Source: Desmodesmus armatus (taxonomy: Eukaryota; Chlorophyta; Chlorophyceae; Sphaeropleales; Scenedesmaceae). From it: a DNA stretch of 64,000 nucleotides. Both the position numbers and the translations under genes were made by a program. This document shows positions 6,101 through 55,007 of this stretch, piece by piece. The DNA lies in NCBI GenBank assembly GCA_007449985.2, contig VIIQ02000213.1, positions 1-64,000 on the forward strand. Direction: 5' to 3'. Every line of letters begins with the position of its first letter. The stretch's first letter is position 1. The notes under the pieces are model-generated. The model had not been told where the DNA came from. It ran no database searches and saw nothing but the letters and a program-made list of their open reading frames with translations.

Positions 6101-6444
6101 ATGGGCTCATATCTGTGTGAGATACCCATAGGTCACAGGATCGAAACCTGTCTCCGCTATGCAAGTCAAATGCCTAAGCCTTCTGGCGAGTATGGGCATG
6201 CCGGCGGGTGGCAGGCAACACATGATGTGGCAAGCTACTGGCCATGGTTACTGTCAGTTTTGACAGTTACCAGTCCAGGTGGATTCTCTCAGATATACTA
6301 AGTATCAGCGTGCCAGCAAGCTGCCAGGGAACACTTGGTGTGGTGCTCTACTGGCCATGGGCAACATCAATCCTGACTACCATCAGCCTAAGTGGATTCT
6401 CCAATGTTTGGACACAACTGCTGCTGCTCGCCCTTTTTTGTTGA

Positions 6445-27093: not shown

Positions 27094-27128
27094 GCAAAGT
27101 TTTATCACCCGTTGCAGAAGCTTTGTCG
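27094..27128 (+). repeat. Left arm of long-range 35-nt inverted repeat
   Basis: This 35-nt segment (GCAAAGTTTTATCACCCGTT then GCAGAAGCTTTGTCG) matches the reverse complement of 46221-46254 with one substitution and one single-base gap. The arms bracket about 19.1 kb that includes the helicase and recombinase genes. The GTTGCAGAAGC core also occurs in the shorter inverted repeat at 46259 and 46970, so it belongs to a small repeat family. Confidence 0.75.
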
Positions 27129-27924
27129 TGCCCCAACCAGTCTGTGCGCCGCAACAAACACACATGCTCAACAGGCCTTTGGGAGGTTTCCAGAATTCGC
27201 AGAGTGCGAAACATTCCGCTGCATCCAACTGCAGCTAGTTATCTCTGTCTCTGTCTCTGTCCCTGTCCGCTTCTTATTGTTGCACATGTCATGTCCCCAC
27301 CATGGTCATGTCCAAACCCTGTTCATGCCATGTTCATGTCCTGTGCCTTCCCTGGTCATGACGGTTAAGTTCAAATCTCTATCAGCCCTGCCCATGCCCA
27401 TGCACATCCCTGCTTCACCTTGGCCACAGGCTTGGCCTTGGTGACAACTTGATCTGTGCCAAGCTCGCTTGGGCACAGCTTGCACCCAGCACATCACCCC
27501 ACAGCTTCAGCCAGCATAAGTAAGCAATCCACCACGGATCATCTTGTGAGTGTTGGCAACAGCTCGGCACATTGCAGATGATCACGGACCACAACATGTT
27601 ACATGTGAGCTGGAATTGGCCACTTGCTGCATGCACAAGGACAACCATGCATGCAACAACTGTTACCGGGTCCGCCGCGCTGAACGCTGGAGGCTGCTCA
27701 CCCTGGACCCTTCTACCCTATAGCTGCCTGATAATCAACAGTCATGCTCCACCCCTTGACACACCAACTGCCTGTCCTGTGGGCACTACAACCAACCCAT
27801 ACAAGTGCCGTCAATGCTGTGTGCACAGTGGGCCATGCATGGGTGAGGACGAACATCGCAGCTTCATCTGAGCCACAGCACAGCGTGCTAGGCCCAGAGC
27901 CTCTAACCTGCTGCAAACCAGGAC

Positions 27925-28700
27925 GTGTGGCCATGCAAGAAACATCATGTGGGAGCCTAGTCTGTGACCTGGCACCCAGATGACAACACAGGTCACAGAA
28001 ACCTCTAGAACCACTCACAATTCCACATGATGCCACTGAGCCTATCAAGTGCTGCCGAACCATCCACCACAGATCCTAGCAACAATGCCTTGTCCATTTG
28101 GCTGTACATGGCTTGGGACACACGTGGCAGCACACCATCTGAGCAGAAGCACCACACCATCCTGCCCAGAACCACCAGTACCTGCTGCAGATCCATGTAT
28201 GTATGGCCATGCCCAGCTAACCACGTGGGAGCCTAATCTGTGACCTGCAGCCGCAGGCAGTCAACAACACAGGCCACAGACACCTCTTGCCCCACTCACA
28301 ATTCCACGATGGCGCCACAAGGCCTATGCAATGCTGCAGCACATCAAACAAAGATGCATGCAACAAAGCCTTGCGCAGTTGGCTGTACATGGCTTGGGAC
28401 ACACATGGCAGCATCATCTGAGCAGAACCACGACATCATCCTGCCCAGAAACACCAGTGTCTGCTGCAGATCCATGTATGTATGGCCATGCCCAGGTAAC
28501 CACGTGGGCCCCTATTACGTCACCCTGCACTGCAGTAGCTGACATCGCAACACACATGCAACTGCTGACATTCCCCCGATGATGCCACTATGCAACAATG
28601 CAACATCCATACATAGAGGCAATGCACTTCAAAGTGCATGGCGAAGACACACATGGCAGCCACATGTGGATAGGCGCACAGCAACAATCTGACCAGAACC
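27925..28700. repeat. Tandem repeat of about 290 bases
   Basis: Two clear units (about 27925-28205 and 28205-28500) and a decayed third share GTGGGAGCCTA.TCTGTGACC, CACTCACAATTCCAC, GGCTGTACATGGCTTGGGAC, ATCCTGCCCAGAA and CTGCAGATCCATGTATGTAT. A third, partial unit continues to about 28700. No consistent reading frame is conserved. Confidence 0.75.
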
Positions 28701-28947
28701 ACCCCAACCTGCTGCAAACCCACAGTGCTGACATGCACGCAATCTGCACCTCACAAACACACACCACACACCATCATTCCTCCCCATGCTGCAGCCAAAT
28801 GGCACAGCACATGGCGCAGCAAGACCGCCATTCCATCAGTGCACTGCTGAATCCCCCCCCCCCCCCCCCCAACACACAGGACTTTGCCAAGTTGCCACCA
28901 ACACACACCACTGCACTGCTGTGCAGCCAATCAGGCCCCCTGGCTGC

Positions 28948-31873
28948 TCATGACATCGACGGCAGCACCCTCTGCCGGTACCAGTCAATCACGTCTTGCT
29001 CAGCAGCAAAGACATCGCGGCTACCGCTGAAGCCCCCCAGAATGCGCAGACCAGTGCGCAGATCGCCACGCACCCGCCCCACCCCACTGTAGCCACCACC
29101 GGCCAGCCAGCCGGCACGATTGAGGTCCAACAGGACCCGCGCAAACTCCAGCCCCTGGGTGGCTGAGACCGTTGTAGCCCAGCCGGCACGAATCGGCAAG
29201 TAGTCCACATCGACCTCGAACACGGTGCCAGTGGGGCCCGCCACCAGCACGCCCCTGGTGACCACTGGCACCTGCACCACCGGACCACTGCTGCTGTCAA
29301 GCCTCACCAGCACTGCCTTGCTGCTGCATGTGAGGTAAGGTAGGTGCGCCGCTGCGTTGGGTGTAGATGGGTCGTCTACGATCGCCACTATGACGCCCAG
29401 CTGGCCAGACAAAATCTCCATGCTGGCACCAGCAGCATCAGGCAGCCAGGTGTGAGTGTGTGCCCACTGCAGTAGAACAAAGCAGCAGCAACCGCAATCC
29501 CATCAGAACACAGCATGCACCACAACAAACCAGATCGCCCTACCCTTACAACGGTTCATGAGCAGATTGCATGTCAACATAAGTCTCAGAGATGCGTGTG
29601 CAGCAGACTGCACACAGCAGCGAACAACATGCCGCATGTCACTACAGGGCCCCATACTCCCCCCCTGATGATAACATCAATTATTACTGCAGATCAAGCT
29701 GCAGGAACCCACACAACCTGACAGACAGTGCAGGACCAGCAGATGGCATACAGCGATGCTGTTGCCGACGCACCTTGCGCCCAACGCCGCGCTCTGCCAG
29801 GAAAACCGGCATGCCGACCTTCAGGGTGACAACAACCAGCCCCTGGGCGGTCATGCGCCAGAAGGCCGCTGTCTGATCGTCTTCTTGAATGTCTTGATGC
29901 ATGCGGCGCATCACCGACTCTGCAGCGGACTGTTCCAGCGTGGCCACCCGGTCAGGGACCTGCTGCTGCATGCCCTGCTGCTGGGGGGTGGGCCTGAAGC
30001 GGGTCGTAAGGGCAAGCAGCACATCATTGCCCGGCAGCAGGCTGCGTTGGGCTGCGTTGTGCTCCATCACATGCTGTATGTTGAAATACAGCCGGATGTG
30101 CCACTCGCCTGCATGCAATTACACCCATCACATCCGCGGCAGCAGGTCCAGCGCAGCACAAAAGTTAACACATGTTCACACACGCCGGACGGCCACAACA
30201 CGGCATACGACACATACTGCCACAGGTGCACGCGTTCCAACTATAGTGACCTGCCTTCAAAAAGGCCGTTGGTGAGGCACCAAGCACAGATACATCACTC
30301 ACCAGGACTGAAGTTGCCACCCAAGTTGTTGAGGAAGTCAAGGTCCGACTGGAGGACGTATTGGCCTCCCAACCCAAACTGCACATACAACAGGCCAGCA
30401 GAATGTGACAGCATACTCAAACAACAGCCTTATCAACCCCATGCAACACAATGGACGCACCAGAGTCCAACCTTCACAACTAGCTGTGCGTGTTCACCCC
30501 ACATTTCTGGAACATGTCACTGCATGTCATGCACAAGATGTGGTGATTGCCTGGCCAGAAATGCAGGTCTGCACTGGCACCCACCACTATATATATACAG
30601 GATATATCACCCACAATGTGCCGATGACATACAACAACAGGTAACAGTCAGATCCACATTTCACTCACCCTCATGAGCATGCCGAACTGGTGGGGGGGTA
30701 GCCGGTAGTTCTGCTGCAGCCTGAAGTACAACAGCTGCCCCGACTGCTCCAGCTGCAGCCACGGCTGCATTAGGAATGCAAACTTCTTGAACCACCCGCG
30801 CTGCAATATGCGTGCGTCCTGCAAGCTGTTGATTTGCAGGGCTTCCCCCACAAAGATCATCACAACACCCCATTTCAAAGCGGCCCACAGCAGCACAGCC
30901 ATTAGCAGGGGGTGCACAGTGAAAGCCTCATCAGACAGGAGAGCGGTGCAGCCCTGCTTAAACTCGCGTATCAGACGGCTGCTGTGCAGGTATTTGGCCC
31001 AGAACCACTGGTAACCAGGCACAAACGCGTCCTGAATAGTGGCGAGTGCTGCCTGGCAGGCAACCTCCCATCTAAAGGCCACACCCATGAGGGCCTCAAT
31101 GGTGGCGTGTGCAGCATACAGACGATGCAACAGCCTGTTGCTGAAACAGGTCTGCACGCTGTACGCGATCGCAAGGTCCCGTAACAGAAAACTGCATGCG
31201 ACAGCGCCAACAGTAAAAGGCAGCAGCATAGTATGTCTGTCAGTCAAAGTATTGCCATTCACACAGATGTTCAGGAGGAACATATGGGCTGCAACAGCAG
31301 CTGATGTATACCCTGACGTGCTGGACAATCGACAGCCAGATGATGAGACACACCACAATCAATCGAAGCAGAGCTGCCTGAGGGGCACAATGTCTTCAGT
31401 ACCACCCAAGCCATCTGAACAGGTGTCATCACGCATGCCCACAACTGCCACCAAATGCAGCGTGAAGCCACCTGATACTCACGCCGTAACATTCAGCACA
31501 GTCGTCTTGCCACAGCCAGGCGGCGCCAGCCCGTGAACAAAGTGCTGCTTTGCACCAGGGTTGGTGCGCTTGGCTGCCACATATCTGCTCACGACCAACA
31601 CACTGAGCGCCACAGCGAACAGCTGGTCGTCCGACAGCTGCCCAAGCTGTGTGATGGCAGGTTCCTGCTGCAAGGTGATTGGGTACGCGGCATGCAGACC
31701 CAGCTCAGCCTGTAACGCGGCCAGGGCCAAGCATCGCATGCAGGCAGGGCCATGGTGGCACCCATTGAACCCTACCACGACGGCTGCAGGCAGCAGAAAC
31801 ACAACCAGCAGACGCAACAAAGTGGGCAAACAGAGCACAGTAATCAGCTCAGTTTCCACCAGTCACAGGCCCA
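28948..31873 (-). CDS. PIF1-like DNA helicase, C-terminal exons
   Basis: Exons: about 31493-31750, 30669-31288, 30303-30378, 29774-30108 and 28948-29421 (TGA). Superfamily 1B motifs appear in order: Q-like/Walker A (LSDDQLFAVA, GLAPPGCGKTTVL), motif II (LLSDEAFTVHPLL), motif III (VVMIFVGEALQINSL), then FRLQQNYRLPPHQFG and FGLGGQYVLQSDLDFLNNLG, the PIF1 segment VTLKVGMPVFLAE, and motifs V/VI (AGWATTVSATQGLEFARVLL, YSGVGRVRGDLRTGLRIL). The frame is open throughout all five exons. PIF1 helicases are 5'-3' DNA helicases; in transposons they accompany rolling-circle or recombinase enzymes. No HUH Rep motif is seen nearby, so a Helitron is not supported. Dispersed-repeat copy 3 sits in the upstream intron. 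The GEAL in place of GD..Q at motif III is atypical. Confidence 0.8.
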
Positions 31874-31950
31874 AGTGATGCATGCAGGGCAGGCAACTGC
31901 TGTTGTACATGCGCCACTGGAAAGAGCAGCATCAGCCACATAGGAATGTG

Positions 31951-32003
31951 CTTCAAATCAAATCAAAGTTACACCTGTAGCTGTAAAGCTCTAGAGTTAC
32001 TGG
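31951..32003 (+). repeat. Dispersed repeat, copy 3 (helicase intron)
   Basis: Contains AAATCAAAGTTACACCTGTA then GCTGTAAAGCTCTAGAG, matching the left part of the copy at 4318. It lies antisense to the helicase gene in an intron. Confidence 0.65.
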
Positions 32004-32181
32004 ATGAACGGTGGCAGCCAACGCAATCTACCTTCTGCAAACAACATGATGTCATTTTTTGCAACTACACACACAATACCAAGTGCAACAGAAGCCGGCA
32101 AGAGGCTGTTTATGGCTGGAAGGACGCCTGCTGCTGATGAAGGGATACACTCCCATCCAAGCTGCTGCACCACTGACTTAC

Positions 32182-33269
32182 CTCCCAGGTACAAAAAAAA
32201 CCCAGCACGTCCTCCAGGAGGGACATATGGTACACCCGGTCCAAAAGGACCAGGAGGAGGGACAGGACCCCCACCCCCACCTCCAGCACCACCCGACCCA
32301 CCCCCGCCGCCCTGCAGTCCCCCGCCTGCACCAGCAGGAAAGCCGCCCCCAACCTGGCCTGCACCCTGACGCTGGCCGGGCGCAGCAGCACCCCCAGGGG
32401 CACCAGGCATTGATGTGTTCTGTCCCCCTGGCCCCATCATAGCCTGACGAGCTAATTGAGCAGCAGCCAGCAGCAGCACTGCCGCTGCTTGCTCCCACCA
32501 TCACCCAAGCTATCGAGACTGCCCGCACTGCTGCAGCGACTTGGTGGCTGGCTGCTGCTGCCATCACCCACAGCAGCACTGCTACCTTGACTGCAACTAC
32601 CAGAACTGCTACAGCTGCTAGGGCTCCTGCAACCGCACTGTTCACCCCACACGTCGTAGCTGCCCATTGCAGCCGCCGGTGCCCCAGCACACGCCGATGA
32701 ACTGCTGCTGCTGCTGCCCAACACCAGCCACAACAGGCAGGTGATGCAGCAGGCTCCTACAGAAGTACACACACGAAATGACAGTAAGCAGCTGCCACAC
32801 CACACTGAGGTGACCACCAGCAGCACAGCAACCATCACAAACACCACCCAGCCAGAAAGATAGCGGTGTAGCCCTGGCCTGGCAGCCAGATGGTGGGCTA
32901 CACCGCTACCAAAATGTGGTGGCTGGCCGTATGGCGCGTGACCCTGCAATGCAGCGGGGTAGGGCTGGCCATAGGGCACCTGACCCTGTGGTGCGGCAGG
33001 GTAAGGCTGCCCGTATGCCACCTGAGCCTGTGGGGTGGCCGGGTAGGGAAGGCTGTACAGTCCCTGACCCTGTTGGGTGACGGGGTGGGGCTGACCGTGT
33101 GGCACCTGGACTTGCGAGGTCACCGTGAAGGGCTGCACCGGCATTTCCTGCCCAGGCGGCAGCTGGGCAGCCATGCCCGCCATGCCTCCACCCCAGATCC
33201 CCCCAACAGGGGGCTGCAGGTTCAGCAGGGCAGCAGCTTCATGCAGGCGTTGATGCACCCCAAGATGCA

Positions 33270-33304
<35 letters not shown>

Positions 33305-33524
33305 GGTGGCTGCTGATTGTGCAAGTGTGGCTGCTGCAGCTGCTGCTGTGCCACATTGAACTGTGCAGAGGTGGGCTGCTGCCCGACGGCCGACACCCCA
33401 GACTGCTGCCACCCTGGCTGCTGCTGCTGCTGCAGCTGCTGCTGCTGCCACGTTGCCCCCGTCTGTCCAGAATCCCACTGCTGCTGCTGCTGCTGCCAGG
33501 GTGCCCCCATCTGCCCAGAATCCC

Positions 33525-33564
<40 letters not shown>

Positions 33565-35080
33565 AACAGACCCTGTCTGACCAGCACCCGTCACCTGCTG
33601 GACCGACTGTAGAAGGTGCTGCACAGCAGGTACATGCTGCCCGTCATAGTGCGGCAGCAGCTGCTGTTGCTGTCCACCACCCAGGCACTGCTGCTGCTGT
33701 GCGTCAGCCATGACGGGACAGCCCACTGCAGAAGGCTGTTGCGCAGCTGCAGCTGCACCGGCAGCAAACCCACCAGCATGCAACTGGCCACCTGCACCAT
33801 GTTGCAGCCCAGTGCTGCCAGACCCCAGCTGCTGAACAGCACAACCAGGCTGAGGGGTGACTGGCACCTCCGCAAGGGGGGCAACAGCACTAGGCACCTC
33901 CACCCCCAACCTCATCAGGGGTGTCTGCTGGCCTAATTGGCCTGTGTGAGTGCCGCCTGATGCAGCACCCCCACCCTGATGCTGAACCCCAGGGGCGAGC
34001 TGCTGGCCATGAGCATCCACACAAGATGCATGTGACTGCGCCACAACAGCAGCGTGCCCAGCCAGCGTCTGCCCACCTTCTGCACTTGCAGTTGCTGAAG
34101 ACCCAAGGCCTTGCTGCACACACTGCTGCTGTGCGACTGTCCTGTTTTAATCCTGTGGGCATGTCTGCTGCTGTTCCGTGGGCGCTACGATCACAGCTGC
34201 CCTGCTGATGTGGTCAGGGGGCAGGGCATCTGCGGTTGCAGAAAGCTGCGGCTGCTGCTGCTGCTGCTGCTGGTGTTTGACCAGCCCTGGGGACCTGGCG
34301 GGGACGCTGGCTGCTGCTGGTGCATGCCTGCGGCAGCTGCCACTGCAGCCCCTGGCCCTCCCAGCACAGCCTGGCCGTCCCGTGGCAAGCCCACAGCACC
34401 CTGCTCAGGCTCATGGGGCTGCATGACCAGCTGGGCTGCTGCAGCAGCCTGACTGCTGCTGCATGGGGCCGCATCACAGCTGCCCCCAGGCGTGGGCAAG
34501 TCATCCAGCCCAGAGGACTCACTGCCAGCAGTGGCATCAGGCACCCCCTGCCGCACTGCTACAGCCTTCAATAGGGCTTCGTACCTAGCAAGAGAGACTG
34601 CGCCTGCCTGCTGTTCCACCGCTGACAGGCCAAACTCCAGAGCCAAACTGCTGGCGATACCCTCCTCGGAAGAACTTGATGCTGCTGCAGCAGCACCCAC
34701 AGCCATCCCACCCAACCCAATACCTGCTGCTTTACCAGGGACAGCCGTCAGCATCTGCTCGGGTGAAGCGCGCTGCTCCTGTGGCAGCCGCCCTGGTGGC
34801 AACGACAGCACTGGCAGATGTTGCTGGGGTGCCTGTCTTGGCTGCTGCTGCTGGAGGAGGGCCTGCCCTGAGTGAGGCTGCTGGACCGGCTGCTGCTGCT
34901 GCCGCTGCTGTGGCTCAGGCAGTGCTTGCTTAGGCAACTGGGGCCCAGGCTGCAACTGCTGCTGCTGCTGCTGCTGCTGTGGCTCAGGCATTTCTTGCTC
35001 AGGCAACCGGGGCCCAGGCTGCAACTGCTGCTGCTGTGAGTCAGGCAGTGCTTGCTCAGGCAACTGGGGCCCAGGCTGCA

Positions 35081-35148
<68 letters not shown>

Positions 35149-36538
35149 GGCTCAGGCAGTGCTTGCGCAGGCAACTGGGGCCCAGGCTGCAACTGCTGCT
35201 GCTGCTGCCGAGCAGCCAAGTCAGTGGCACCACCGCCTGGTGAGGAAACAGCCGCGCTTTCGGGTGCTGCTTTCCGCTGGGCAAGCGTACGCAGCAGCTG
35301 TGCTTGGGCCGCAGCGTCAGCAACAGCAGCCGGCTGCTGCACTTGCGCGTGCAGGGCTGGCGTGTGTTGCTGCACATGCTGTCGCGATGTTTTGGGGTGC
35401 TCCTGCTGCTGCAGCTGCATCGACACTGTTGCCGCATTGTCCTGCTGTTGTTGCTGCTGCTGCTGCGGCTGCTGGTTTTGTGCCAGCGCAGGCTGAGGCG
35501 GCGGGGATGCCGACAGCGGCTGCCGCTGCGGCTGCTGCTGGTGGAGGGCCTGCTGCAGTGCTGCCGCGTGGTCCTGCTGCTGCGGAAGCGCACGCGCAGC
35601 CGCCCCCCCCCCCCCCCCCCCCCCCCGCAAGCTGGTGCTGCTGATGTTCAGTCTGCGCAGGCTGAGGCGGCAGGGATGCCGGCAGCTGCTGCTGCTGTGG
35701 CTGGCGGGCCGCTGCTGCTTGCTGAGCCAGCTGAGGCAACTGCGACTGCAGAGGCACACGCGCGGCCGGACCATCCACTTGCGGTTGCTGTTGCAGGTGC
35801 TGTGCCGCCGCAGGCACAAGCAGCGGGGATGCCGGCAGCTGCTGCTGCTGCTGCTGCGGAAGGTTGCAGGTAACTGCTGCCTGCTGATGCGTCTGGGGCA
35901 ACTGCTGTTGTGATGCCTGCTGCTGCGGCACAGCCTGCTGCTGTGGCACACGTTGCCTCGCATCGCTTGGTCCCTGCTGCTGCGACCCAGCCTGATGCTG
36001 CTGAAGCAGCACATCCAGCAATCCAGCTGGCGACTGCTGGGCGCTGACAGCACCACCATGACCCACCTGCTGCGAGACCTGCGGCAGGTGCAGCGGTGGC
36101 CGCACTGATGAGGAGCCCTGCAGCTGCGCTGCGACCGCTTGCCTGCGTGCCTTCAGCTGCTGAAGCTCATCCCCTGCTGGATCGTCGTCCCCAGCGTTCA
36201 GGGCTGCTGCAAGCTGCCTCTCAGTCCGCTCAGCCTGCTTCCGTGCCGCAGCGGTCAGCTCAGTGTACCGTGGGGCTAGCAAGCCCAACTCATGCTGCTG
36301 CTCTGCGAGCTGCTGCTGCTGTTGCCATGAGGCTGTGGCAGGCTGCTGGACGCCACGAGGCTGGCACTGCTCTGTGGGTGGGCTGGCCCCCAACATGAAC
36401 GACAACGGCCCCAACTCCGCAGCTGCAGCAGCAGCCGGCAGGTCACCATTGGGCCCTACCAGGGCATCAGTGGCGGCTAAAACAGCGCGCAGGGCAGCAG
36501 GCGTGCTGCCAGATAGCTGCGGGAACGCCGCCGCTCCA
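32182..36538 (-). CDS. Glutamine-rich middle exons of the helicase gene
   Basis: Three coding blocks lie directly upstream of the helicase exons on the same strand. From 5' they are: 36538 to about 34230 (starts SGAAAFPQLSGSTPAALRAV; an LQPGPQLPEQALP repeat occurs four times among long Gln runs; ends near LTTSAGQL); about 34130 to 32900 (Gln-rich, with a PYGQPYPAAPQGQV repeat about five times); and 32182-32443 (Gly/Pro-rich, ending at GGGAG/GTAAGT). In the first block the frame changes across a G run on the sense strand at about 35605-35627, most easily explained by a wrong homopolymer length. The blocks are prion-like, low in charge and probably disordered. That all belong to one protein with the helicase is inferred from strand, splice sites and absence of other starts. 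Confidence 0.5.
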
Positions 36539-36709
36539 CTGCACACCAAGCATGGGAAGGACACAACAGCAGCACAGCAGCATCAGGATAGCAGCACGGA
36601 TAGCAGCTGCTAACCTTCATACCCAACAAGCACTACAGACCCACCAAGGCATAAGTATGTGCTGCACAACAACATGATGGCAGCGAGACGATCTCATGCC
36701 GACTGATGA

Positions 36710-37273
36710 CTATGACCTGCGCCCAGCAGGCAACTGCACAAACCCACCTGGGCAAGAGCGGGAAGTGAGCTGGAGGTACGATCCCAGCCCTGCCGATGCC
36801 AAGTGCAGCCCGCTGCTGCAGAGCCGCCTGGCCTGCTGCGGACTGCATGAATTGCTGCCCATGCTGCAAGAACTGCTGCTGCAGAAGCTGCTGCTGATGG
36901 CTTCTGCCTGAAGCCTGCTGCTGTGCAATGTTACCCACTGGAGAGGCCCATGCGCTGCCGGCTGCATGATTGCCCTGCGGCAACCCAGGCTGCTGCTGCT
37001 GATGCTGCTGCTGTCGCTGTTAGTGCTGCTGGTTGGGCTGCCAGGCTGAAGCAGCAACCGCCCCTCTGTCCACCTGTGGGTGGTGCCGCTGCTGCTGCTG
37101 GTGCTGCTGCTGTTGCAGGGGCTGCTCCTGACCCATCCAGTGCAAACCAGCTGAGGCCTGCATCATGTTGTGAACAGCAGCCTGCGTCCTGGCCACCTGC
37201 TGCGCTGCGTCATCGTCATCATCATCATATGGATCCAAGCCATGGTCCCAACCTCCATCAGAAGAGTCAGCAC
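36710..37273 (-). CDS. Gln-rich exon with internal TAA
   Basis: The exon starts at an acceptor at 37273; joined to the exon ending at 37902 it reads SPDEGADSSDGGWDHGLDPY in frame, followed by an Asp run and a Gln/His-rich stretch. An in-frame TAA at 37020-37022 sits inside the run QPNQQH-stop-QRQQQHQQQQ, after which the same frame stays open for about 100 codons (PQGNHAAGSAWASPVGN, then a Gln-rich region) to near 36760. The stop is therefore either a nonsense change of a CAA codon, a sequence error, or a reassigned codon. It probably belongs to the same gene as its neighbours. Confidence 0.5.
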
Positions 37274-37901
37274 CTGGGCAGCACGAGTACGGCACATGCA
37301 ACGTATGTCAATGCACACGCTGACATCGCCCTAATGACTACACATGGTAAAGGAACCGACCTTGAGGGCAGCAAACAGGCAACAAACACAAGCAGTCGAC
37401 TCTGACCATGCCCAGTGTGGCAGCAGCACCATAGGTTGCAATGTAGTCGCTCAGCAGGCTCCGCACTCACACACCTGCAGCGGCAGCAGCAGCCTTCCGC
37501 CGTCTCTTGGGGCCCTGCTGAGGGGCATCATGCCCTGCATAGCACAACAAACAACTGCTGAGAGCCTACACTGGGCTAGCAGGGGACCGTGGTGCAGGTT
37601 GAGGGGCATAATGTGTGCTGGAGGAACGGAGTCACCAACGCATTGAAACGATCCCCTGTCTCCACATGTGTCTAGTTGGGACAAAGTGTGTGCGACCTAG
37701 CGGACGAACATGGCTTCGACCCGAGGTGTTGATCTGTGCCAGTGTGCACTGTGAAAGTCACATGTTGGTCCGGCTGATGAACGCAACTTTTGGACAACTT
37801 TTGGACAAGGTAGTTTCGTACGACATTCTGTGGCAACGTGCATGGTCTGAGGGTGTTTTGCTGACAGCAGTGCGACCGGTGATCGTCCACAACACACTCA
37901 C

Positions 37902-38520
37902 CCTCGTCGGGTGAACCCCCCAAGAACACTTTGTAGTCCTGGCTTGCCGATCCGTTCAGAATGGCACGCAGCGCTTGCGTGATGGACAGGTTGTCCGGGA
38001 GCTCCAAGTCGGCACCCGCTGCTGCACCACTGCTGGCCAGCACCAGGTTGGCGCGATCCCGCACCTCCTCCGCCATCTCTACCGGGTTTGAGAGGAAGCG
38101 CTGCCGTGCTGCCGCCAATACCAAGGGGCCGCTGTCACACCCAGGCTGGGCAATGACCCGGTCAACACCCTCGAACACGGCTGCAACCACAGCGCCACTG
38201 AACAGCGGGGGTCTCTTCATACGACTCTTGCAGCTTTCACTACCAGGGCGGTGTGTGCTGCCTTTGAACTGGCCACAGCACCCAGGACATTCATGGAGTA
38301 CCTTGCGGCACCAGACCTTGTCGACTATGATTGTTTGCATCGTGCCGGAAACATCACCAAACACCAAGCAGGAAGAAAGGGCTACGCGCCGCTGCTGCAC
38401 AGTGATCCTGCAGCCACGAGTTACACGGACCCGCCTAACGTTATCGGGTGTGGGGTGCTGGGAGAAGCAATTCACAGTCCCAAACACCAACAACGTTGCC
38501 CAAAAGACATATGATTGGGG
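37902..38520 (-). CDS. Cys/His-rich exon, probable N-terminal part of helicase gene
   Basis: The open frame runs through VFGDVSGTMQTIIVDKVWCR, then KVLHECPGCCGQFKGSTH, RPGSESCKSRMKRP, and a helical segment EMAEEVRDRANLVL, ending at a good donor (GACGAGG/GTGAGT). The spacing C-x2-C-C and later H and C residues could form a zinc-binding site; I do not recognise the family. The 5' limit is uncertain: the frame stays open to 38757 but the upstream part looks non-coding. It is spliced in phase to the exon at 37273. Confidence 0.45.
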
Positions 38521-39387
38521 TGCGGCGTGCCGGGGCGGCCCTGCAGGACATGCAGTCATACCAACCTCAAATTGCAGTGGATGACAGCACAGCCAACTCA
38601 CATGGACCCACCCACCGTGTTTGCATTGCATATGTCTTGTCTGAGTTCTGCTGCCTGTGCAATAGCCAATGCTATTCCCCCACGCCGCGAGAGAAAGTGA
38701 AGGAGAGAGAGAGAGTTCACATACATGGGTGTTTGCTGCTGCTGTTGAGGGCACCAACTATGCATCTGCTCAATCACCGGTGGGAAGCAGCAAAGTACAC
38801 CCCGTCCTTACAGTTGCAAACACGTGACCATGCACACTACCATAACTACCATGCCAGCTTCACCATCAGCATGCATCCTTTTAAGCAACATTCGTAACAC
38901 CCCAAGACCCTGCTGTTGCACCAAGCGTGCAATTGCTCAATCAAACGACAGTTGGACCATAGACAAGTGCACCCCATCCATACAGTTACAAGCACAGTAC
39001 CACAACTACAATGCCAGCTACACCATCAACATGCACCCTTGCAAGCAGCATCCATACCACACTAACTCTCTGAAACTCACTCAGACCACCGCGTTGACAG
39101 AACAGATCCAGAAGCCAACCAATAAAACCACGCACCCCTCCCCCCGTCCAACCATCTACAGGTGGCAAACGCCACAATGCAGCCAGCAGCACCACAAACA
39201 CCCCCCCCCACACACACACACACCCACCAGCAGTGCGTCCCAAAACAGCACAGGTCCTGCCCATAGACAATACAAATGGTGCAGCCAAAAAAGGTGCCCA
39301 CCATCATGACAGCACATGTACATGCTGCGCGACAAGGCCAGATGCAGCGCAACCTGAACAAAGCGCAGCTGACCAATGCCACCCTCG

Positions 39388-41077
39388 TTAAACAAGGTTA
39401 AGCACACGCTTGAGCTGCAAGCTGACGAACGCAGCCTGAGACATGCCGGAGCAGTCCAGCGGCTCAAAGAACCAGGTGCGCAGCACCTCGGTGGTGTCAC
39501 CACACTTCGACAGCACAGTCTGTGCGTCAAACTGGCGCTGCATCTCAGCCCTGAATGCCTTGACATAGGCACCCTGCGCGTAGCGGCCCACCTTGACAGC
39601 GGGCACAGACGGACGGTACCGTGCGTACTGCTCATAGCAGTCACGCCTTGCAGCCTCAGCAACCCTCCTGGCAGCAACAGTGTCAGGGGTCAAGTTGCGT
39701 GAGTGTGCCAGCTCAACAGAGCCGGGCATCTGCCGCACAGGCTGGCCACGCAACAAGGCAGTGGTGTCACCATTCAGGCGGGTGGCATCGGTGTACATGA
39801 CTTTGGTGGTGAGGTTGGGGTTGATGTGCCCCAAAGCAGCAGTGCAATCCAGATCAGTGGCCTGGGGGTGATTGGTGACTGCTGTGCCAGCCGTCTTGCG
39901 CCCGCTGATGGCACTGCACTTGCTGGGGTTCAAACCCAAAGCAATGCCGACAGTGGTGCAGACGCTCGACATGGTGGTGGTGTACACGCTGTAGCGACCG
40001 CCTGTCAGCAGCCGGCCAGACATCATAGGCAAGCCACGCATCTCAGCGGGCACAAACCACGGCTTCACACCGAAGATAGACCCCACCAGGCTATCAATAT
40101 CCTCACACGTCCAATCCCCAGGCCCGGCCAGGCGGTCACTGTGGCCCATCGTGCCACAATTCCCAGGCAGAGCCACATAAGGTGCGTACCCAAAAGCCCC
40201 ATTCAGTATGGCCCAGACCAACCATGCCAGACAAGGACAGGTGTCGACCTCCTCACTATGGGTCAACTTCCCGACACCGATGCGCCTATTCACCAGCTTG
40301 CCCGCCACCACAGTGAACTGGGGGTTGCGATTGAACTTTGTGCGGTTGCCCTGGATCTGCACAGCCACCAGCCGGCCCCCCGCCCAGTGCAGCTGGCAGT
40401 CGCCCCAGGCAATCACAGGCACCCCACCCCACCGAGCAGAAGACATATCGCTAGGCTTGTGTGTGAAGGACATCGGCCGCCAGCCCAGGTAGCTGAAGCA
40501 ACCCAGCGTCATCCGCGCAAAGGCAGGCCACATGGGGTTCTGTAGGTGGGCATACCCATGCACATCCCACATCAACAGCAACTGCATGCCTGCATCCACC
40601 AAAGCAGCATCCCAAGCACACTTGGTGTTGCGCTTGCTGCGTGCAGCTGGGAAGACCATGCCAAACCCACACACGACACGCAAGATGATTGCGAACTGCG
40701 ACTTATGCATGGCACCCAACACAGCAACAGGGGTGGGGCTCATGTATATCAAAACATGCACCAGCATCCGCAGGTACTGCTCCAATGTGCTGCACTGCAG
40801 CCCGTTGCAGCGCTGGCTGTAGTGAAAGAAGTGCCCAGCAACAGCTACCCACATCACCTCCGTCAGGGGCAGCATGGACCAACGACACGCGAAATACCCA
40901 TACACCATGCAAAAATCAAACCACATGTTTATGACATCAACATACTTGAGCCAAGTATCTTCGTTGGGCCCAGCATACTCAGCGCGGGCACGGTCACTCT
41001 TGCACTTGCCCGCATGGTGGCTGGCTGTGTGGTAAGCCACCTGGCGAGTCTCCTGGTCAACCTGCATGAAACGCGCC
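39388..41077 (-). CDS. Tyrosine recombinase (phage-integrase/Crypton-like), main exon
   Basis: A single open frame of 559 codons from its first Met (41067), preceded by an acceptor (GCTGCTGCAG/G at 41077), ends at TAA. The C-terminal half fits a tyrosine recombinase: Arg I in LGWRPMSF (R197), a beta-hairpin Lys candidate in GNRTKF (K244), CPCLAWLVWAIL (typical CP.xaL helix), Arg II in SGRKTAGTA (R390), and LGHINPNLTTKVMYTDATR with H414 and the nucleophile Tyr Y425. The His of the usual HxxR is Ile here. The N-terminal 190 residues would be the core-binding domain. It would cut and rejoin DNA in the nucleus through a covalent 3'-phosphotyrosine. No RNase H or reverse transcriptase lies nearby, which argues against DIRS/Ngaro; Crypton-type is the nearest known class. 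Confidence 0.75.
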
Positions 41078-41702
41078 CTGCAGCAGCCAGCACAAACACC
41101 AGCATGTCAGCATTCCAGGCCACAATGTGCCCATGGCTTGCACGTCCGCATACACACCAAGCGTGCATGGGGTGCTGTACAGCACAGTAGCAGCCACCAG
41201 GACAACTGCGCTATGCAAGGAACCGCACAGACCAGGGCAAAGCAAGCTGCAACAAATGAGCAGCAGCACACTGCGAGACCACGCACCGACTAGCGATAGT
41301 AAGACGCAATGCAGCCCAACACCACCCACCCAACCTCATATCATACACACCTGCCAATCCGACGACCGTACACAGGCAGCCGCATCGTCCACTTAGATGA
41401 TCAGGGCAGCCTTGATACACCTGCAGCATCAGCAAAAAGCAACGGCAGTGTGCTATAAATAATTGATCACGTGCATGACAGATTCCACCTGTGATCAACT
41501 CTCACCAGGAACCCGTCCCACAACTAACAGCGCATGCAGTACCGACCACACCAACAAAGCGTGCGCCAGCAAAGCAAGCAAGTTGCTGCTATCAAACAAG
41601 GATTCTGCACCAGAATTACACAACCGTGCGCAGCTGGGGACAGGCCTGCCAAACCAGACCTTCCCCTTGGTCAACACCCTGCTTCAGACACCCCGGTCTC
41701 AC

Positions 41703-42456
41703 CTGTACAGGAAGCACCAACCCACTTGATGGATTGCCGTTGCAGTATGCTGGACAGCCTGCAGAAGGAAGCAACCAAAGAAAAAAAATGGGACACAGGT
41801 TGCTGACAGTATCGGCAATCATGCAGTCTCGCACACAATCACATGCACAGGCACGGCACCACGTGCGCGCTGGCCCGCAGGCAAACACAGTCACGCACGC
41901 AGTCACAGGGGCGCTGCAACATGCTGGCACGCAAGCTCGCACTCCAGGTCGCATGCTGCCTTGTTCATAACCCCTGACCCTGAACCCCGCACTCCAGGTC
42001 GCATGCTGCCTTGCTCATAACCCCTGACCCTAAACCCCGCACTCCAGGTCGCATGCTGCCTTGCTCATAACCCCTGACCCTAAACCCCGCACTCCAGGTC
42101 GCATGCTGCCTTGCTCATAACCCCTGACCCTAAACCCCGCACTCCAGGTCGCATGCTGCCTTGCTCATAACCCCTGACCCTAAACCCCGCACTCCAGGAT
42201 GCATGCTGGCCTGCAGGAACAGGTACACAGTCCTGCACACACGCCCAACACACGCACACATACCACAAACGCACGTATGCAGAAACGCACACCAGCAGGC
42301 CTCACCTGAATTGAACGCAGGGACCCACGCGTCAGGGGCGGCCCGAGGAGCAGTCCTGACGGCCAGCAGAACAAGCCTGGCACAAAAGCACGACAGCAGG
42401 GCAGTACAGAGCATGTTGGTCAGGCAGCGCTTCATGCAAGAGTGGCACCAGCCCAC
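41703..42456 (-). CDS. Possible 5' exons of the recombinase gene
   Basis: An ATG exon at 42306-42456 (MGWCHSCMKRCL to WVPAFNS, donor TTCAG/GTGAGG) joins in phase to a 56-nt exon at 41703-41758 (GCPAYCNGNPSSGLVLPVQ, donor CAG/GTGAGA). A further candidate (VYQGCPDHLSGRCGCLC, acceptor near 41435) lies between these and the main exon, but I could not find a phase-consistent path into 41077. The 50-base tandem repeat lies in the intron between the first two exons. Confidence 0.3.
41941..42200. repeat. 50-base tandem repeat, about five copies
   Basis: Near-identical units start at 41941, 41991, 42041, 42091 and 42141, with a partial sixth. Each unit reads ACTCCAGGTCGCATGCTGCC, TTGCTCATAACCCCTGACCC, TAAACCCCGC, and so contains a telomere-like CCCTAAACCC. 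Low divergence means recent expansion. There are no spacers, so it is not a CRISPR array. Confidence 0.95.
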
Positions 42457-45400
42457 TGTTCACAGCCACATACACAGCATACACCCAGCATCCTGCTCCC
42501 AAATACCACCTGCACATATTCCGTACAGCAGCATGCACACACCAACCCAGCCGCCCTGCTAGGCCAATGCCGTGCCTACCACATCCCGTGTGGTACCGGC
42601 AGGCACTTCAAAACACAACAGCAAACAGACAGCACTCACAGTATGATGACAGCCGTGTGTCCCCACGATCTTGGGACTTGTGACATCCCCTGCAACACTG
42701 CCAGTCAGAATTAGTGGGAGGGGCAAGATTCGAATCTGTGTTTTCCCTGCATTCAGTGTGGCTAAGGCCAGGACTCTGCCTTCAGGGTTTGTGTGAAACG
42801 GCAACGAGACATGAATGTTGAATCTTCAAGAGGTGTCACCTCTGCAACCCAAAATATGTGCCAGCCGTGACCTGGCAGCCTGCAACATCAGCATGAATGT
42901 TCATTAGTTGTTTGCATGCTGCCCAGGACAGCCAGCATGCACTCTGTCAGCGACATGTGTGCAGCTGCACCTGCATGGCATGACTGCCACCAGGCTTGCG
43001 TACTGATGCAGGCTGAGAGGTTGAGGTGGGCCTGACAAGGGATTGCAGCAGGTCACACTGCACTGCATATTTTATACAGTAAGGGTTACACCTGCAGCAC
43101 CCCAGTTGATGTTGTGTGCCCAGAGTTCTAAGTGATCTGCAAACATGTCATGCTGGCGCCACTGTCAGGTGTTCGCCCTCAGCTGTTGCTGTGGTGAGAT
43201 GACTAGGTGACTGGCCACCAAGCCATGCTGCCATGCACAATAACTGTCAAAGCAGCTGAGCAGGATTTGCTGCTCACAGACCTGACGACCTTCACCGTCG
43301 TGAATTGCATCAACCGACGTCAAAGAGCAGGCAGCTTCCGCGGCTGATGTATACATGTAAAATACGTATGCAATTACTACAGCCAAGCAACCTCAGCAGC
43401 CCACCAGCATGGGGCACGGCAGGCACCTGCCATCGACGGCGATGGGCTGCTGTCACGCGGCGTGAACGTGCCTGACCGCGAGCAAACGGGTGTCCAACAG
43501 TAGATATTGCAACACGTATGCATCACTACAGCCGTTCTGGCTTGACAGCCAAGCACCCTTGGCAGCATGTGCCATGGCACCGGCGATCGACGGAGGTCCA
43601 CCTGCCCCCCGGCGCCAACTGCCGGTCCGAGCGCCAACCTGGCCTGTTCGCAGGCAAACTGGCATCAAACAGCAGCTATTATGCTGCGGTATTTACTGGT
43701 GTGCACCGTCGGCCCTGCCGAGGCCGAAAAAATAAAACCATGTTCAACCGTATTGCACAAGACGTGAAAGTTAAATCTTGCAATAAAAGCCTGCAGGACA
43801 GCAACACAGCAGCCAAAATCCCCTCAGAAGCGGTTGAAACATACATCCAGCCACAACTAAGCAACTGCAACACCGACCAGCTGTCCCCCACGCCACATTG
43901 AATGCGTTTGCAAGGCTGAGCAAAAGCATCAAGTATGCTGGGCAGCCTGAGACGACACATGTTCAGCCACAACAGCACAGGGTTGCTGAGATCACTAGAC
44001 CCTGCCTTGAAAATGGCATCTGCCATGGATTCGAGTCACATTTGCCCACAGCACCACACCGACAATGGCATGCGCATGTCTCACCTGTGCTGCACACGTA
44101 CTTGAGCAGATTGCTCAATAGGCTGCCTCACCCACAACCCTAGCACAGAACACCTACAGAACAGCACAGAGCAGCACGTGTGCACATGACAGTTTGGCGG
44201 TCATGCTCAAGCATCTGTAGCCCCACACGAAGCTGCAGCATTGTGGCCCCAATTACGCATCAGCTGATCACACAACAATCACAATTGGGTTCCATCACCC
44301 CACACATCAACCCAGCTGCCACTCAGTTACTACTCCAGTACTGCCGAACAGCCCACACAGCAGCAAACACTCCCCGACCCCCCAACATTGCAACTGCCTG
44401 GTCCACTACCCCAGCTGCAAACAAACCACTTCTACCCACAACCAGCCAGGCTGTACTCACTTGTGCTGGGACAGCTCGTGCCTGGCACTGTGCTACTGCA
44501 CTGCCGAAACTACCTGTCGTACGCCTGCAGCCAAGACAATCAGCAGCAAAAAGCAACAAACAGTTACTGCACAGCGATGAAGTAGCCAGGACAACCATGT
44601 CAGCGACAGCAAGCAGCAAGCAATCGCGACGGGCAGATCACCAACTGCAGAACGGGATGCATGGCTGCAGCAAGAAGCTCAAAAAGACTGGCATGTCTTC
44701 TAATGCCGCACAAGCGACGACCACAGTGCGAAACAGCGCTGGTCAGGAGACACAGCAGCTGACGATGAGACCACCCTACCCGCAATGACGCTGGGGACCC
44801 ACCTGCTTGGTAAACATACACCCGAAAGCAACGGGAACGCCTCAGAATGCCACTGCAACGCGGCAGCCGCTGCCACACACTTTCTTGCACCGGGCTCCAC
44901 TGTATCCTCAGGCTTCAGGGAGTATGGCATAAAACAAACCAGCCAACCTGAAAAGTAATAGACGTGAGCAACGCATGCGCCCAAACACAGCACTAACCCA
45001 GCTGGGCACCAAAAGTATACCCTGTGTGACAGACCTGTGTGTCTGTGTGTCACTCCAACCGTCCATGGGACGCACCCCGCTCAGAAACAACTCCGGCGTC
45101 CTCATACATCCATTCAAACCATCAGTGATCAACACCCTCGCTCGGTCACTGCCGACCCATGTATTTACCATTGGCCCCATGTGTGCATTGGCCAAGCAAC
45201 TCAAGCCAGCCATTGTACAATACATACAATAGCTGAGCTGATCTTCAGTGACTGAAAAGTGCACTCGACAAAACTTCCACAAACTTACTGCATTCAATGA
45301 CCTGTTCATGCATGAACAACCCACTTGCATTCAGGCATGCATGATTCATGCTGATTCAAAGATATTCAGGTGAGTGCCACTTTGGGGTGTGCGCAAACAA

Positions 45401-46220
45401 AGCTAGTCGGTCAAGAAACAATGCTGTTTCTCGGTGGCACCGAACTGAAGGCTCCACTCGGCGCTGCTGACGGACGCTGCAGCTGACTGGACCGAACTGG
45501 GGTGACACACTTTGCACCGGTGTGCCAAAGCAGACACAGAACGACTTATCTACCACTGGAAGGCCTTTCGGAAGGCACCTGCGCTTGTGGCACCGGTGCA
45601 CAAACATTGAAAAAAAATCACCCCGACTTTTTTGGCAAAAACATCCAGTCAGCGAAACAAATTGCAAAAGTGCCCAACTTTTTTTTGGGGAAAACATCTA
45701 GGCAACAAAAAGCAAACTTTCGCAAAACACAAACCGAACGGAATCACGGTCTCTGTCTTTGTCGCAATTTCGCACTTTTTTCCTCTCCCCCTCTTCCTCT
45801 ATCCTAGAATGGGGACAATAACGTTACCACGGAAAACAATTGTGTGCAAAAGGTGTAGATAAACATCTTGGACGTTTTGGAATTGACAGCAGATGTGCAT
45901 GTGGTCATATCTCACACTCTGGAGCAGACCGTGAGATCATGCCACAGACATCCCTTCTGGCGCTGCTGAGAAGCCAAAAGCTGCTCAAATGTATGTATGA
46001 TAGTTTGAAACCCTGCAAACGCACTCATGTGGCCAAACGGTGAATTTACAGCAGCATGATGGGACCACTTGCCCTTCGCATCCCACCCATAGGCCATCTG
46101 AACGAGATTCAAACGTGCAGATAGCAAAACTTTTATCTGATCGATATCCCAGCAGAGTTTCAGCGCCATCTGTTGCTGTCACGTTCGGACGTTCTGAACG
46201 TTCTGCAACTGAGTCCTGCG

Positions 46221-46254
46221 CGACAAAGCTTCTGCAACGGGTTATAAAATTTGC
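46221..46254 (-). repeat. Right arm of long-range inverted repeat
   Basis: Begins CGACAAAGCTTCTGCAACGG; the reverse complement matches 27094-27128 with one substitution and one single-base gap. It is immediately followed by the shorter inverted-repeat arm at 46259. Confidence 0.75.
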
Positions 46255-46258
46255 CGTT

Positions 46259-46995
46259 ATCACTAGTTGCAGAAGCATTTGCGTTGTCCCTTCTGAAAAA
46301 TGCACAAAAAACAAAAGCATTGTATGATAGTTATAGAAGTTGTTTTGGGCCCTACGGACAGCTGCTGTGGCTGCAGTAGAGCCCCTTCCATCACTGTACA
46401 ACACGATCAGCAGCTGGGAGCTTTTGCGGCGCCACAGGACCCACGCAAGCATCGAAACGTGGCGTTTGGATGTTGCTGGATGCAAATCAAGCAAACAGCA
46501 CCCCTTGCAGAGTCAGCATGAACTGCAAGGCACCAGGCAGGTCCAGCACAAGGTCACATGTGCTGTTGTTGAGCCCTCCAGAGGTGCTGATATGCCACAA
46601 AAATTTATCTAGCGTTGTCCACTAACACTTGAGCGCCTCATCACAGCGTCTCTGCGCCTGTCCTGGCATTCTGGCCTCCCAAAACCCCCATTGCTCAGCT
46701 AAGCTGCTTTCAGTGGCTGAGACCGCAAAACAGCACGTGCTGGCACGCCGATCATACGGACATGTTTCTCTATGATACAAAGAGTGTGTCAGCACCCCTG
46801 CTGTCACGTACACGGGTCCGATAGGGCCAGCAGCAGGACACTTCCGATCTGATGAGGTCGTGGAATTTTAGCAGGCTGCCTGGCGGGCTTCCAGGGCTCA
46901 GAATAGCATCTGTAATACTGCATAAACGTTCTGTGTTTTTTTGCAAAAAACGCACTTGCAAAGCTGGTGACGCAAATGCTTCTGCAACTAGTGAT
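46259..46995. repeat. 737-base segment bounded by perfect 26-bp inverted repeats
   Basis: 46259-46284 and 46970-46995 are exact reverse complements (core CTAGTTGCAGAAGCATTTGC). Similarity fades beyond the 26 bp, and no clear target-site duplication is seen. The interior has no transposase-like ORF, so if mobile it would be non-autonomous. Confidence 0.8.
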
Positions 46996-47793
46996 CGGTC
47001 TCTGTCTTTGTCGCAATTTCGCACTTTTTTCCTCTCCCCCTCTTCCTCTATCCCAGAATGGGGACAATCGTTTTCCACTGATCAAAACGTGCAGTAAAGG
47101 CCGCCCTGCGAAAGCCTCTGGCCTAGCAGTACAAACTCCAGGATGCGATCCTGACTACCCATGAGCTGCTGCAAATGTCCTACTGTCGCCCCAGTAGTGT
47201 CGGGAAAAGGCCATCACTGTCGTAAGACCTGCTGGCTGGGGGATGAGGTGATGATGTACATTGACCATGGATGTCCTGGCATGAAGTGGGCTATACAGAT
47301 GTGAACGTTCTAGATTGAGGCGCAACTATGAAAACGTTTGTCAGCAGGGGCTAACTGTCACACACTGTCAAGTGTCACATACGGATCTGCTGATCATCTC
47401 AGACCGTATGGTGTTGGCATTTGCAGCAGTGTAATATTCCATTGCATGCCATTGGTCGAGCTTGTGGAACTTGCAAATTCAACGGCAGCAGCCATGCTCC
47501 TGAGGCTTCGTGATCACCTTGTGGCAACGCCAACAGGGGTGTCCCCCACGCCCGCTGCTGCACGCAAGATACGTGGTGTGAACATTCAACATTATAGTAT
47601 ACACATTCCGTGCAGGAGCGGTAAAGTTGCAACCTCAACGAGCTGTGGTGCTACTGCTGGGGGGATATATACCCACATAAATGTGCTGCTGCTGTCTGCA
47701 GTTTGTGCCTCCCTGTCAGCAGATGGTGCCAAACGACATCAGCTTTGCCTGCCACACATCCATATTGAAACACACAACCAACACCAGCAAACA

Positions 47794-53651: not shown

Positions 53652-54029
53652 GCAGTTCTTCCTGCAAGCAGCACCCCAGGAGCAGGAGATGGTGAGTCAG
53701 CAACCTTCAGCTGTGGGAAGGGGAGACGCAGGCTGGAAGCTTACATGCGCTGCGCGCCTTCTATGGCAGCATTACCTGGACTGATCTGCTTGAACAGACC
53801 CCTGCAGCCTGAAAAGTTGTGTTGTTGTTTGGGCACGTGTGTGCAGTGACGTGTGCAGTGAGAAGCAGGAACCTGTTGAAGCGGAGGAGGGACACAGCGT
53901 TATCTTCAAACAATTTGCTGATCGTGCGGCTTGCTGGGAGGAGACACCGGCCCTTCCGGTGACCTGCTGATCGAGGTTTGCCAGGCTGTTGTCTTCGCAC
54001 GATGTTGAACAATACAGGTCGCCGTCAAT
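53652..54029. promoter_or_regulatory. Shared divergent upstream region of NLR-A and the membrane protein gene
   Basis: Only 378 bases separate the ATG of NLR-A (-) from the ATG of the 54030 gene (+), so both promoters and 5' UTRs probably lie here. A CCATGCAGTTCTTCCTGCAAG stretch adjoins the NLR-A start. In NLR-B the coding ATG follows a pyrimidine-rich stretch and CAG (56725), suggesting a 5' UTR intron there. No specific element is recognised. Confidence 0.4.
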
Positions 54030-55007
54030 ATGGATCAGCATGAACGACTTGCATCCCTGATGGCGTCGGCTCCTGCATTTCGGGTAACTGTGGTGTCCTC
54101 TGGCTTCGAAGAGCACAAAGAATGGCTCAACTTCCTGGTCTCAGTCCTGAACCTCATCGCAACCATATCCATACCATTCCTGTTGTGGTGGTATGGCAAG
54201 CAGCAGGAGAAGCAGCAGCAGCAACAGGCAGCACAGCAGCGGCTACAGGGCCATGTTGGCCAGCTCAGCAGTGCTGGTGGCGCTGCCATAGAAGAGATTG
54301 GCTCATTCAAGGACGACTGCGAGTCCTTAGGCGCATCGTACACGGATGTGTTCAAACACAAGACCTTGTTTTCTCTGCCAGAAGGAGAGATCACGCGCAA
54401 GCAGCTGCAAGAGGTTGACCGCGCTCGCAGGATTCTGCAAGGCATCTGGGACAACATAATGGACGATTACAGGGCTGACATGCTTGGAGGCCCCATCACG
54501 GACCCTCGGCAGGGCCGCATGCTGCGCAGGGGCTTGACCTATAGGGAGCTGGTGGAGCCTCTCGAGGCTGCAAACTTTGCCCGCCTACAGGCTGTCAACA
54601 GCAGGGTTGCTGCACAGGGACTCTACGTACGCCGCGCGCCACCTGCAGCTACTGGGCAACAGAGCAGCAGCCTGATGGCCGCTGCCATCAAGTGTCGCCC
54701 TGGAGCACGCCCCAGCCGCTTCAGGTGGCTGGAAAACCAGCGGACCCTCCAACTGACTGGTAAGGAGCTGTGGAAGGTTGAGACAGCACAGGACGGCAAG
54801 GAGTACTGCATTGACGCAGCAGCAGCGGTGCTTTTGGAGCCAGGGTGTTCTGCTGACCAGCAGGCATGGCGGGAAGCTCTGGTGAACCACTGGGAAGCAC
54901 TGCAGCAGGCGTGCACACCCCTCACAGCACCGTCTGGTGCTGCTGCTGGAGCTGCCGGGCAGCAGGTGCAGGCAACGGGGGCGGCAAAACTCCCTGCAGG
55001 CCTGTGA
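54030..55007 (+). CDS. Unknown 325-aa single-pass membrane coiled-coil protein
   Basis: An uninterrupted frame starts MDQHERLASLMASAPAF and ends TGA. One membrane span is likely at about residues 33-55 (WLNFLVSVLNLIATISIPFL then LWWYG), followed at once by a Lys/Gln-rich helical stretch (GKQQEKQQQQQAAQQRLQG) and a soluble domain with RKQLQEVDRARRILQGIWDN, RRGLTYRELVEPLEAANFAR and FRWLENQRTLQLTGKELWKV. The tail is Ala/Gly/Gln-rich. I do not recognise the family. A TGTAA motif lies at 55353. The gene is intact, unlike its neighbours, and sits between the two NLRs divergent from NLR-A, so a functional link to them is possible but only inferred from position. Confidence 0.75.
   Translation: MDQHERLASLMASAPAFRVTVVSSGFEEHKEWLNFLVSVLNLIATISIPFLLWWYGKQQEKQQQQQAAQQRLQGHVGQLSSAGGAAIEEIGSFKDDCESLGASYTDVFKHKTLFSLPEGEITRKQLQEVDRARRILQGIWDNIMDDYRADMLGGPITDPRQGRMLRRGLTYRELVEPLEAANFARLQAVNSRVAAQGLYVRRAPPAATGQQSSSLMAAAIKCRPGARPSRFRWLENQRTLQLTGKELWKVETAQDGKEYCIDAAAAVLLEPGCSADQQAWREALVNHWEALQQACTPLTAPSGAAAGAAGQQVQATGAAKLPAGL

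What the first reader, a model, noticed from the sequence alone, without database searches (positions are those of the whole stretch)
27094..46254. Tyrosine recombinase plus PIF1-like helicase: candidate undescribed mobile element
Seen: on one strand, a tyrosine recombinase exon (R197, K244, R390, H414, Y425) lies directly upstream of a multi-exon gene whose C-terminal part has all PIF1-like helicase motifs. Known: PIF1-type helicases are the hallmark of Helitrons with an HUH Rep; tyrosine recombinases mark Cryptons and DIRS/Ngaro. I see neither HUH Rep nor RT/RNase H here. Inference: the pair forms one large DNA element using recombinase integration and its own helicase. A near-perfect 35-nt inverted repeat brackets the block.
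Basis: partly seen in the sequence, partly recalled or inferred. Interest (0 to 1): 0.75.

Follow-up and report, generated by a model that had tools for sequence, protein, structure and literature searches.

The report
Algal recombinase-helicase mobile element
A green-alga-like genome seems to carry large jumping DNA elements that pair a tyrosine recombinase (a cut-and-paste enzyme) with a PIF1-like DNA helicase, a pairing seen here in two very different families, although the inverted repeat that first drew attention belongs to a small separate transposon that the big one landed in.

Summary

The inverted repeat was misread. It is the ends of a ~470-bp MITE with five other copies; the 18.7-kb block 27140-45819 sits inside one MITE copy, which lacks 12-16 bp.

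The pair recurs: a diverged family at C188 and C610 (YR 25% identical) again has YR then PIF1-like helicase on one strand. The 3 loci with helicase from Walker A to the end all have a YR upstream. Against: YR loci C53 and C794 lack the helicase; helicase fragments at C584, C731 and C171 lack a YR.

No reverse transcriptase, HUH or capsid match in 47 of 47 block ORFs of 120 aa or more. Best reading: a YR DNA transposon with its own helicase; left end unresolved, mobility inferred.

The parts
27140..45819 (-). inserted block (18.68 kb) carrying YR and helicase, oriented by its genes; 5' end at 45819 (that base fits block or MITE)
   Evidence: both edges are breaks in a MITE copy; the right edge is also the common end of a dispersed family
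39388..41106 (-). tyrosine recombinase, 572 aa, single open frame
37864..38352 (-). conserved stretch after the YR with a Cys2-His-Cys motif (CPGC..H..C)
   Evidence: 38.6% identical to C53, tblastn E 8.8e-22
32452..36582 (-). Q/P/G-rich open frames, partly conserved in C53
32182..32443 (-). upstream exon ending PPGGRAGFFLYLG; its splice donor is also present in C53
31483..31783 (-). helicase exon 1, Walker A GCGKTT (minimal model starts at 31709)
30669..31191 (-). helicase exon 2, Walker B LLSDEAFTV
30303..30378 (-). helicase exon 3
29774..30108 (-). helicase exon 4
28948..29466 (-). helicase exon 5, motifs V and VI, stop
   Evidence: 11 homologues, alignment A2, dN/dS 0.033 against C584
45737..45819 (+). 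terminal sequence of the block, dispersed in the genome with a common outer end
   Evidence: 34 matches including itself; edges
27102..27139 (+). left piece of the interrupted MITE
   Evidence: 100% over 34-38 nt to four of five MITE copies, 98% over 41 to the fifth
45820..46248 (+). right piece of the interrupted MITE
   Evidence: 92-94% to five of five MITE copies
42707..43835 (.). probable later nested insertion, absent from the C53 copy
   Evidence: C53 alignment breaks at 42706/43836, and 94-98% pieces at C794

Best explanation
The block 27140-45819 is one copy of a large eukaryotic tyrosine-recombinase DNA transposon that also encodes its own PIF1-like helicase. Layout in two families: outer end, 4-5 kb leader, YR, a stretch with a Cys2-His-Cys motif, low-complexity linker, PIF1-like helicase, 1-2 kb, other end. 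Shown: the YR and helicase genes, selection on both, a block lying inside a MITE, and recurrence of the pair. Inferred: the YR excises the element as a double-stranded circle and inserts it without target duplication; the helicase unwinds the excised circle or a replication intermediate so that the element gains copies, as the Rep-linked PIF1 helicase is thought to do in Helitrons (recalled). Mobility itself is inferred from copies at unrelated sites.
Confidence: 0.62

Rival explanations
1. The YR element ends near 32 kb and the window helicase is a separate mobile or host gene that came to lie next to it; the element is then an ordinary large Crypton-like YR transposon.
For: C53 YR copy lacks the helicase; C584 and C731 hold helicase pieces without YR; a C53 terminal-repeat copy lies about 270 bp beyond the shared splice donor; 12-16 bp of MITE are missing at the helicase side.
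Against: The pair recurs in C188 and C610; the three loci with helicase from Walker A to the end all have a YR upstream on the same strand; the exon before the helicase joins it in frame and its donor is present in C53; the whole block lies within one MITE.
Confidence: 0.2
2. A decayed DIRS/PAT/Ngaro YR retrotransposon whose reverse transcriptase is lost.
For: PAT-like DIRS elements are reported in Chlamydomonas and Volvox (passages of PMC8226300 and PMC3266345); the C53 5' end has an inverted copy of 206 bp at 84482-84687.
Against: No RT or RNase H match in 47 of 47 block ORFs of 120 aa or more or in the 8 C188/C610 ORFs or ORF pieces scanned; shorter exons were not scanned. The YR is under purifying selection. 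The YRs that Pfam does detect in this genome are other loci.
Confidence: 0.06
3. A Helitron/Helitron2-like rolling-circle element, the helicase being its Hel domain and the YR a passenger.
For: PIF1-like helicase; terminal 70-200 bp dispersed with a common outer and fuzzy inner edge, like the one-ended copies described for Chlamydomonas (passages of PMC3627910); no TSD signal at 19 sites.
Against: No HUH/Rep match in 47 block ORFs; the YR accompanies the helicase in both families.
Confidence: 0.06
4. An integrated polinton-like virus or virophage with a YR.
For: Some PLVs carry YRs, and the related Tlr1 element carries a PIF1-like helicase (passages of PMC4642659); the size of 18.7 kb would fit.
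Against: No capsid or packaging match in 47 block ORFs, though Pfam can miss remote capsids; no confirmed relative of the YR family in the viral contig scan (151 pattern matches, 0 confirmed) or, for the window YR, in the phage collection.
Confidence: 0.03

Closest known systems
Crypton (YR DNA transposons)
   Same: YR without RT; no TSD signal; Foldseek's top (weak) match is Ndc10, which Kojima and Jurka link to CryptonF
   Different: 12-19 kb with a PIF1-like helicase; the word helicase does not occur in that Crypton survey (term search); no Pfam match
Starship giant transposons of fungi
   Same: YR gene on one side with its 5' side towards the nearer end, large internal content (Starship features recalled; only listing and abstract starts seen)
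   Different: no DUF3435 match by Pfam; alga-like host; a recurrent helicase
Helitron / Helitron2
   Same: PIF1-like helicase as element-encoded enzyme (recalled); dispersed one-sided ends
   Different: YR and no HUH Rep found
DIRS / PAT / Ngaro retrotransposons
   Same: YR; known in volvocine algae
   Different: no RT or RNase H found

Membership tests
Crypton | tyrosine recombinase as the transposition enzyme | tested here: met
   presence of a YR; that it drives transposition is inferred
Crypton | YR close in sequence to Crypton YRs (tree) | not tested
   no reference Crypton sequences available; Foldseek top hit Ndc10 at E 0.1 is only a hint
Crypton | short terminal direct repeats, no TIR, no TSD | tested here: inconclusive
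   no TSD at 19 dispersed ends (mean longest shared word 4.95 vs 4.61 in mispaired control, 31 of 300 control rounds reach it); no inverted match between the two family-B ends; C53 has a 206-bp inverted end
DIRS/PAT/Ngaro | reverse transcriptase and RNase H in the element | tested here: not met
   0 matches in 47 of 47 block ORFs of 120 aa or more
Helitron | HUH Rep endonuclease | tested here: not met
   0 matches in 47 of 47 block ORFs of 120 aa or more
Helitron | PIF1-like helicase | tested here: inconclusive
   window gene below Pfam cut-offs; C188 gene AAA_30 E 1.7e-5 and PIF1 E 0.0048, both below cut-off; motif region conserved in 12 sequences
Starship | DUF3435 captain | tested here: inconclusive
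   no Pfam match for window or C188 YR, but Pfam also misses the general integrase domain in them
Polinton-like virus | capsid proteins and packaging ATPase | tested here: inconclusive
   no Pfam match in 47 block ORFs; remote capsids could be missed

The most novel reading that the evidence does not exclude
A new superfamily of eukaryotic transposons in which a tyrosine recombinase and a PIF1-like helicase form one replication-integration module (in C610 the two are linked by one open frame, with two 2A-like motifs upstream of the YR): a recombinase counterpart of the Helitron Rep-Hel protein that copies an excised circle and re-inserts it.
Probability: 0.35. Interest if true: 0.8.

Novelty: new variant of a known kind. 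Interest (0 to 1): 0.62.

Why it matters
Eukaryotic YR DNA transposons are known mainly as short elements or as fungal cargo carriers, and how they gain copies is, to my knowledge, unexplained. An element type that brings its own helicase would suggest how such elements replicate, and would link YR integration with the helicase otherwise typical of Helitrons. Two diverged families in one genome, plus 15 YR and 11 helicase-exon homologues in public data, make it testable.

Tried and rejected
Inverted repeat as element TIRs: rejected. TSDs at dispersed ends: not above control. Viral relatives of the YR: none confirmed. Homologues of the spliced 559-aa helicase: none at E<=0.001 among the 7996 candidates scored, while the exon-5 ORF found 11; I put the difference down to introns and the length window. 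Helicase fold from a single sequence (C188): pLDDT 34, discarded, no fold search made. Family-A to family-B zinc-finger homology: not significant. Right end of family B: left open, because C610 leaves the C188 sequence at C188 149258 while C171 follows it to 149424 and is palindromic there. PIF1 profile over the genome found 5 loci, not the window or C188, so the element helicases lie far from the Pfam model. One weak unrelated Pfam hit in the block (Colicin_im, E 0.027) was disregarded. Literature: in nine searches (lists capped) no title or abstract start that I saw describes a eukaryotic transposon with YR plus PIF1 helicase. Only open-licence PMC papers are held; I read passages of seven, none whole, and did not open PMC10799480 or PMC12721341, which hold the terms.
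Full report
Setting. The window is G000:C209:1-64000 of a 115.8-Mb, 831-contig genome without a name.

Copies. In the own genome the YR is found at C53 (86%, one stop), C794 (57%, residues 5-391), C188 (29%) and, over about 60 residues, C656; a distant family member as query added C610. C53 aligns with the window in the same order from 34.3 to 45.8 kb, the piece at 32.2-33.0 kb lying inverted beyond it. YR dN/dS between window and C53 is 0.115 over 568 codons.

The helicase. Five exons, 31709 to 28948(-), splice to an open frame; a further exon, 32182-32443, joins in frame through donor GGGAG|gtaagt and acceptor ctgcag. That donor is present in C53, although no helicase was found in the 60 kb held there. 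A search with the ORF holding exon 2 returned only the window. The exon-5 ORF also occurs at C584 (99% aa) and, rearranged, at C731 (84%); C584 matches the window from 27242 to 30275 only. The exon-5 ORF has 11 database homologues, 42-88% identical; TTV, QGLEF and other positions are invariant in the 12. Between the window and C584, exon 5 differs by 20 synonymous and 2 non-synonymous changes (dN/dS 0.033). Family assignment is weak for the window gene (AAA_30 E 0.0011, below cut-off; PDB).

The inverted repeat. The core ACCCGTTGCAGAAGCTTTGTCG occurs 13 times exactly, control 0. Besides the window pair there are pairs spanning 466-473 bp in C162, C172, C224, C586 and C637, one lone exact end in C637 and one two-mismatch hit in C345. 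C172 and C586 have the same flanks, so four independent sites. Aligned to these five MITEs, the window holds the first 33 MITE positions at 27107-27139 and the rest from 45818/45819 to 46248 (92-94%), lacking 12-16 bp between, depending on the copy compared. The 18.7-kb block is therefore an insertion into a MITE, in one or several steps; the missing bases mean that the left edge may have been trimmed.

The right end. Window 45700-45825 matches 34 places (itself included, a lower bound); 19 stop exactly at 45819 and 33 of 34 between 45817 and 45825, where the query ends. In the 13 regions that I fetched, in the window and in C53, sequences part after GGGGACAA or GGGGACAG (one, L045, carries an insertion there), while the inner edge scatters, mostly between 45637 and 45748. 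C53 70004-70209 has an inverted copy at 84482-84687 (98%). No TSD signal at 19 sites. This one-sided abundance resembles what is described for Chlamydomonas one-ended elements (PMC3627910, passages); I cannot explain it under a simple YR model.

The second family. A profile of the window YR family hits C188 141628-143517(+) at E 4.2e-32, and a profile of helicase exon 5 hits C188 145865-148036(+) at E 6.8e-4. That 724-aa ORF shows GGGKTTS, LIIDEVSQV and NCQQMQGMT, AAA_30 E 1.7e-5 and PIF1 E 0.0048, all below curated cut-offs, and Dda-like helicase E 1.9e-4. C610 carries both genes again at 95-97% (YR) and 87% (helicase), with broken frames. Its 878-aa frame 148859-151492(+) runs from the YR C-terminal half into the helicase N-terminal part. 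Two 2A-like motifs (GDVEVNPGP, GDVEANPGP; the name is recalled) lie upstream of the YR in both copies. C188 137187-149258 and C610 139692-154237 are homologous in pieces of 85-98%, interrupted by 3.5 kb present only in C610 and 0.87 kb present only in C188, with a sharp left end and unrelated left flanks. YR profile comparison with family A: E 1.5e-21, 25% identity; reciprocal search E 1.6e-9 to 2.7e-11. Helicase A to B: only E 4.5e-4 by profile.

Counting co-occurrence. YR loci: window, C53, C794, C188, C610 (5; C656 left out as a short fragment). Helicase loci: window, C584, C731, C188, C610, C171 (6). Both: 3 (window, C188, C610), of which C188 and C610 are close copies, so two independent lineages. 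The three helicase-only loci are incomplete: C584 lacks everything before window 30275, C731 is rearranged, C171 matches residues 231-724 only. With 6 helicase loci in 116 Mb, a YR lies within 20 kb of one by chance in about 0.2% of cases (6 x 40 kb / 116 Mb, my estimate), so two independent pairings are unlikely to be chance, although transposon-rich regions cluster.

Mechanism. Shown: conserved YR and helicase genes, purifying selection, a block inside a MITE, copies at unrelated sites. Inferred: excision to a circle by the YR, integration without TSD, helicase-aided replication. Not shown: activity, circles, the precise end on the helicase side.

Comparison. Crypton passages (PMC3212892) describe YR elements, some with a peptidase, with short terminal direct repeats or none and no TIRs. 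PLV passages (PMC4642659) describe YRs in capsid-bearing elements and a PIF1-like helicase in Tlr1, which has another integrase. DIRS passages (PMC3266345) describe RT and RNase H. No RT, HUH or capsid match was found in the 47 block ORFs of 120 aa or more; shorter exons were not scanned. Nine literature listings showed me no YR plus PIF1 eukaryotic transposon. I file it as a new variant of YR DNA transposons and keep a new superfamily as the bold case.

Noticed in passing
window 47938-62830: Nested imperfect palindrome: at least ten inverted-repeat pairs (70-92%) around roughly 55 kb; the left arm at 47794-49608 encodes leucine-rich repeats.
   Followed up: no
window 46996-47068: Solo copy (99%) of the block's terminal 73 nt just outside the MITE, next to a second inverted repeat pair (about 46254-46282 and 46969-46996, seen by eye) resembling the MITE ends.
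   Followed up: partly
G000 C188:139787 and 140789; C610:145830 and 146831: Two 2A-like motifs upstream of the family-B recombinase in both copies.
   Followed up: partly
G000 C2, C36 (two), C142, C552, C711, C712, C231: A separate set of Pfam-detectable tyrosine recombinases, seven of them with the same score, suggesting a recently active YR element of another kind.
   Followed up: no
L061 (C171 about 144026-145456): Family-B right end and its inverted copy flank a 567-bp insert whose own ends are inverted copies.
   Followed up: partly
window 41938-42208: 50-bp tandem repeat, 5.4 copies at 98% matches, inside the leader of the element.
   Followed up: no
window 6076-6159: tRNA gene by Rfam, for which ARAGORN gives an incomplete anticodon.
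   Followed up: no
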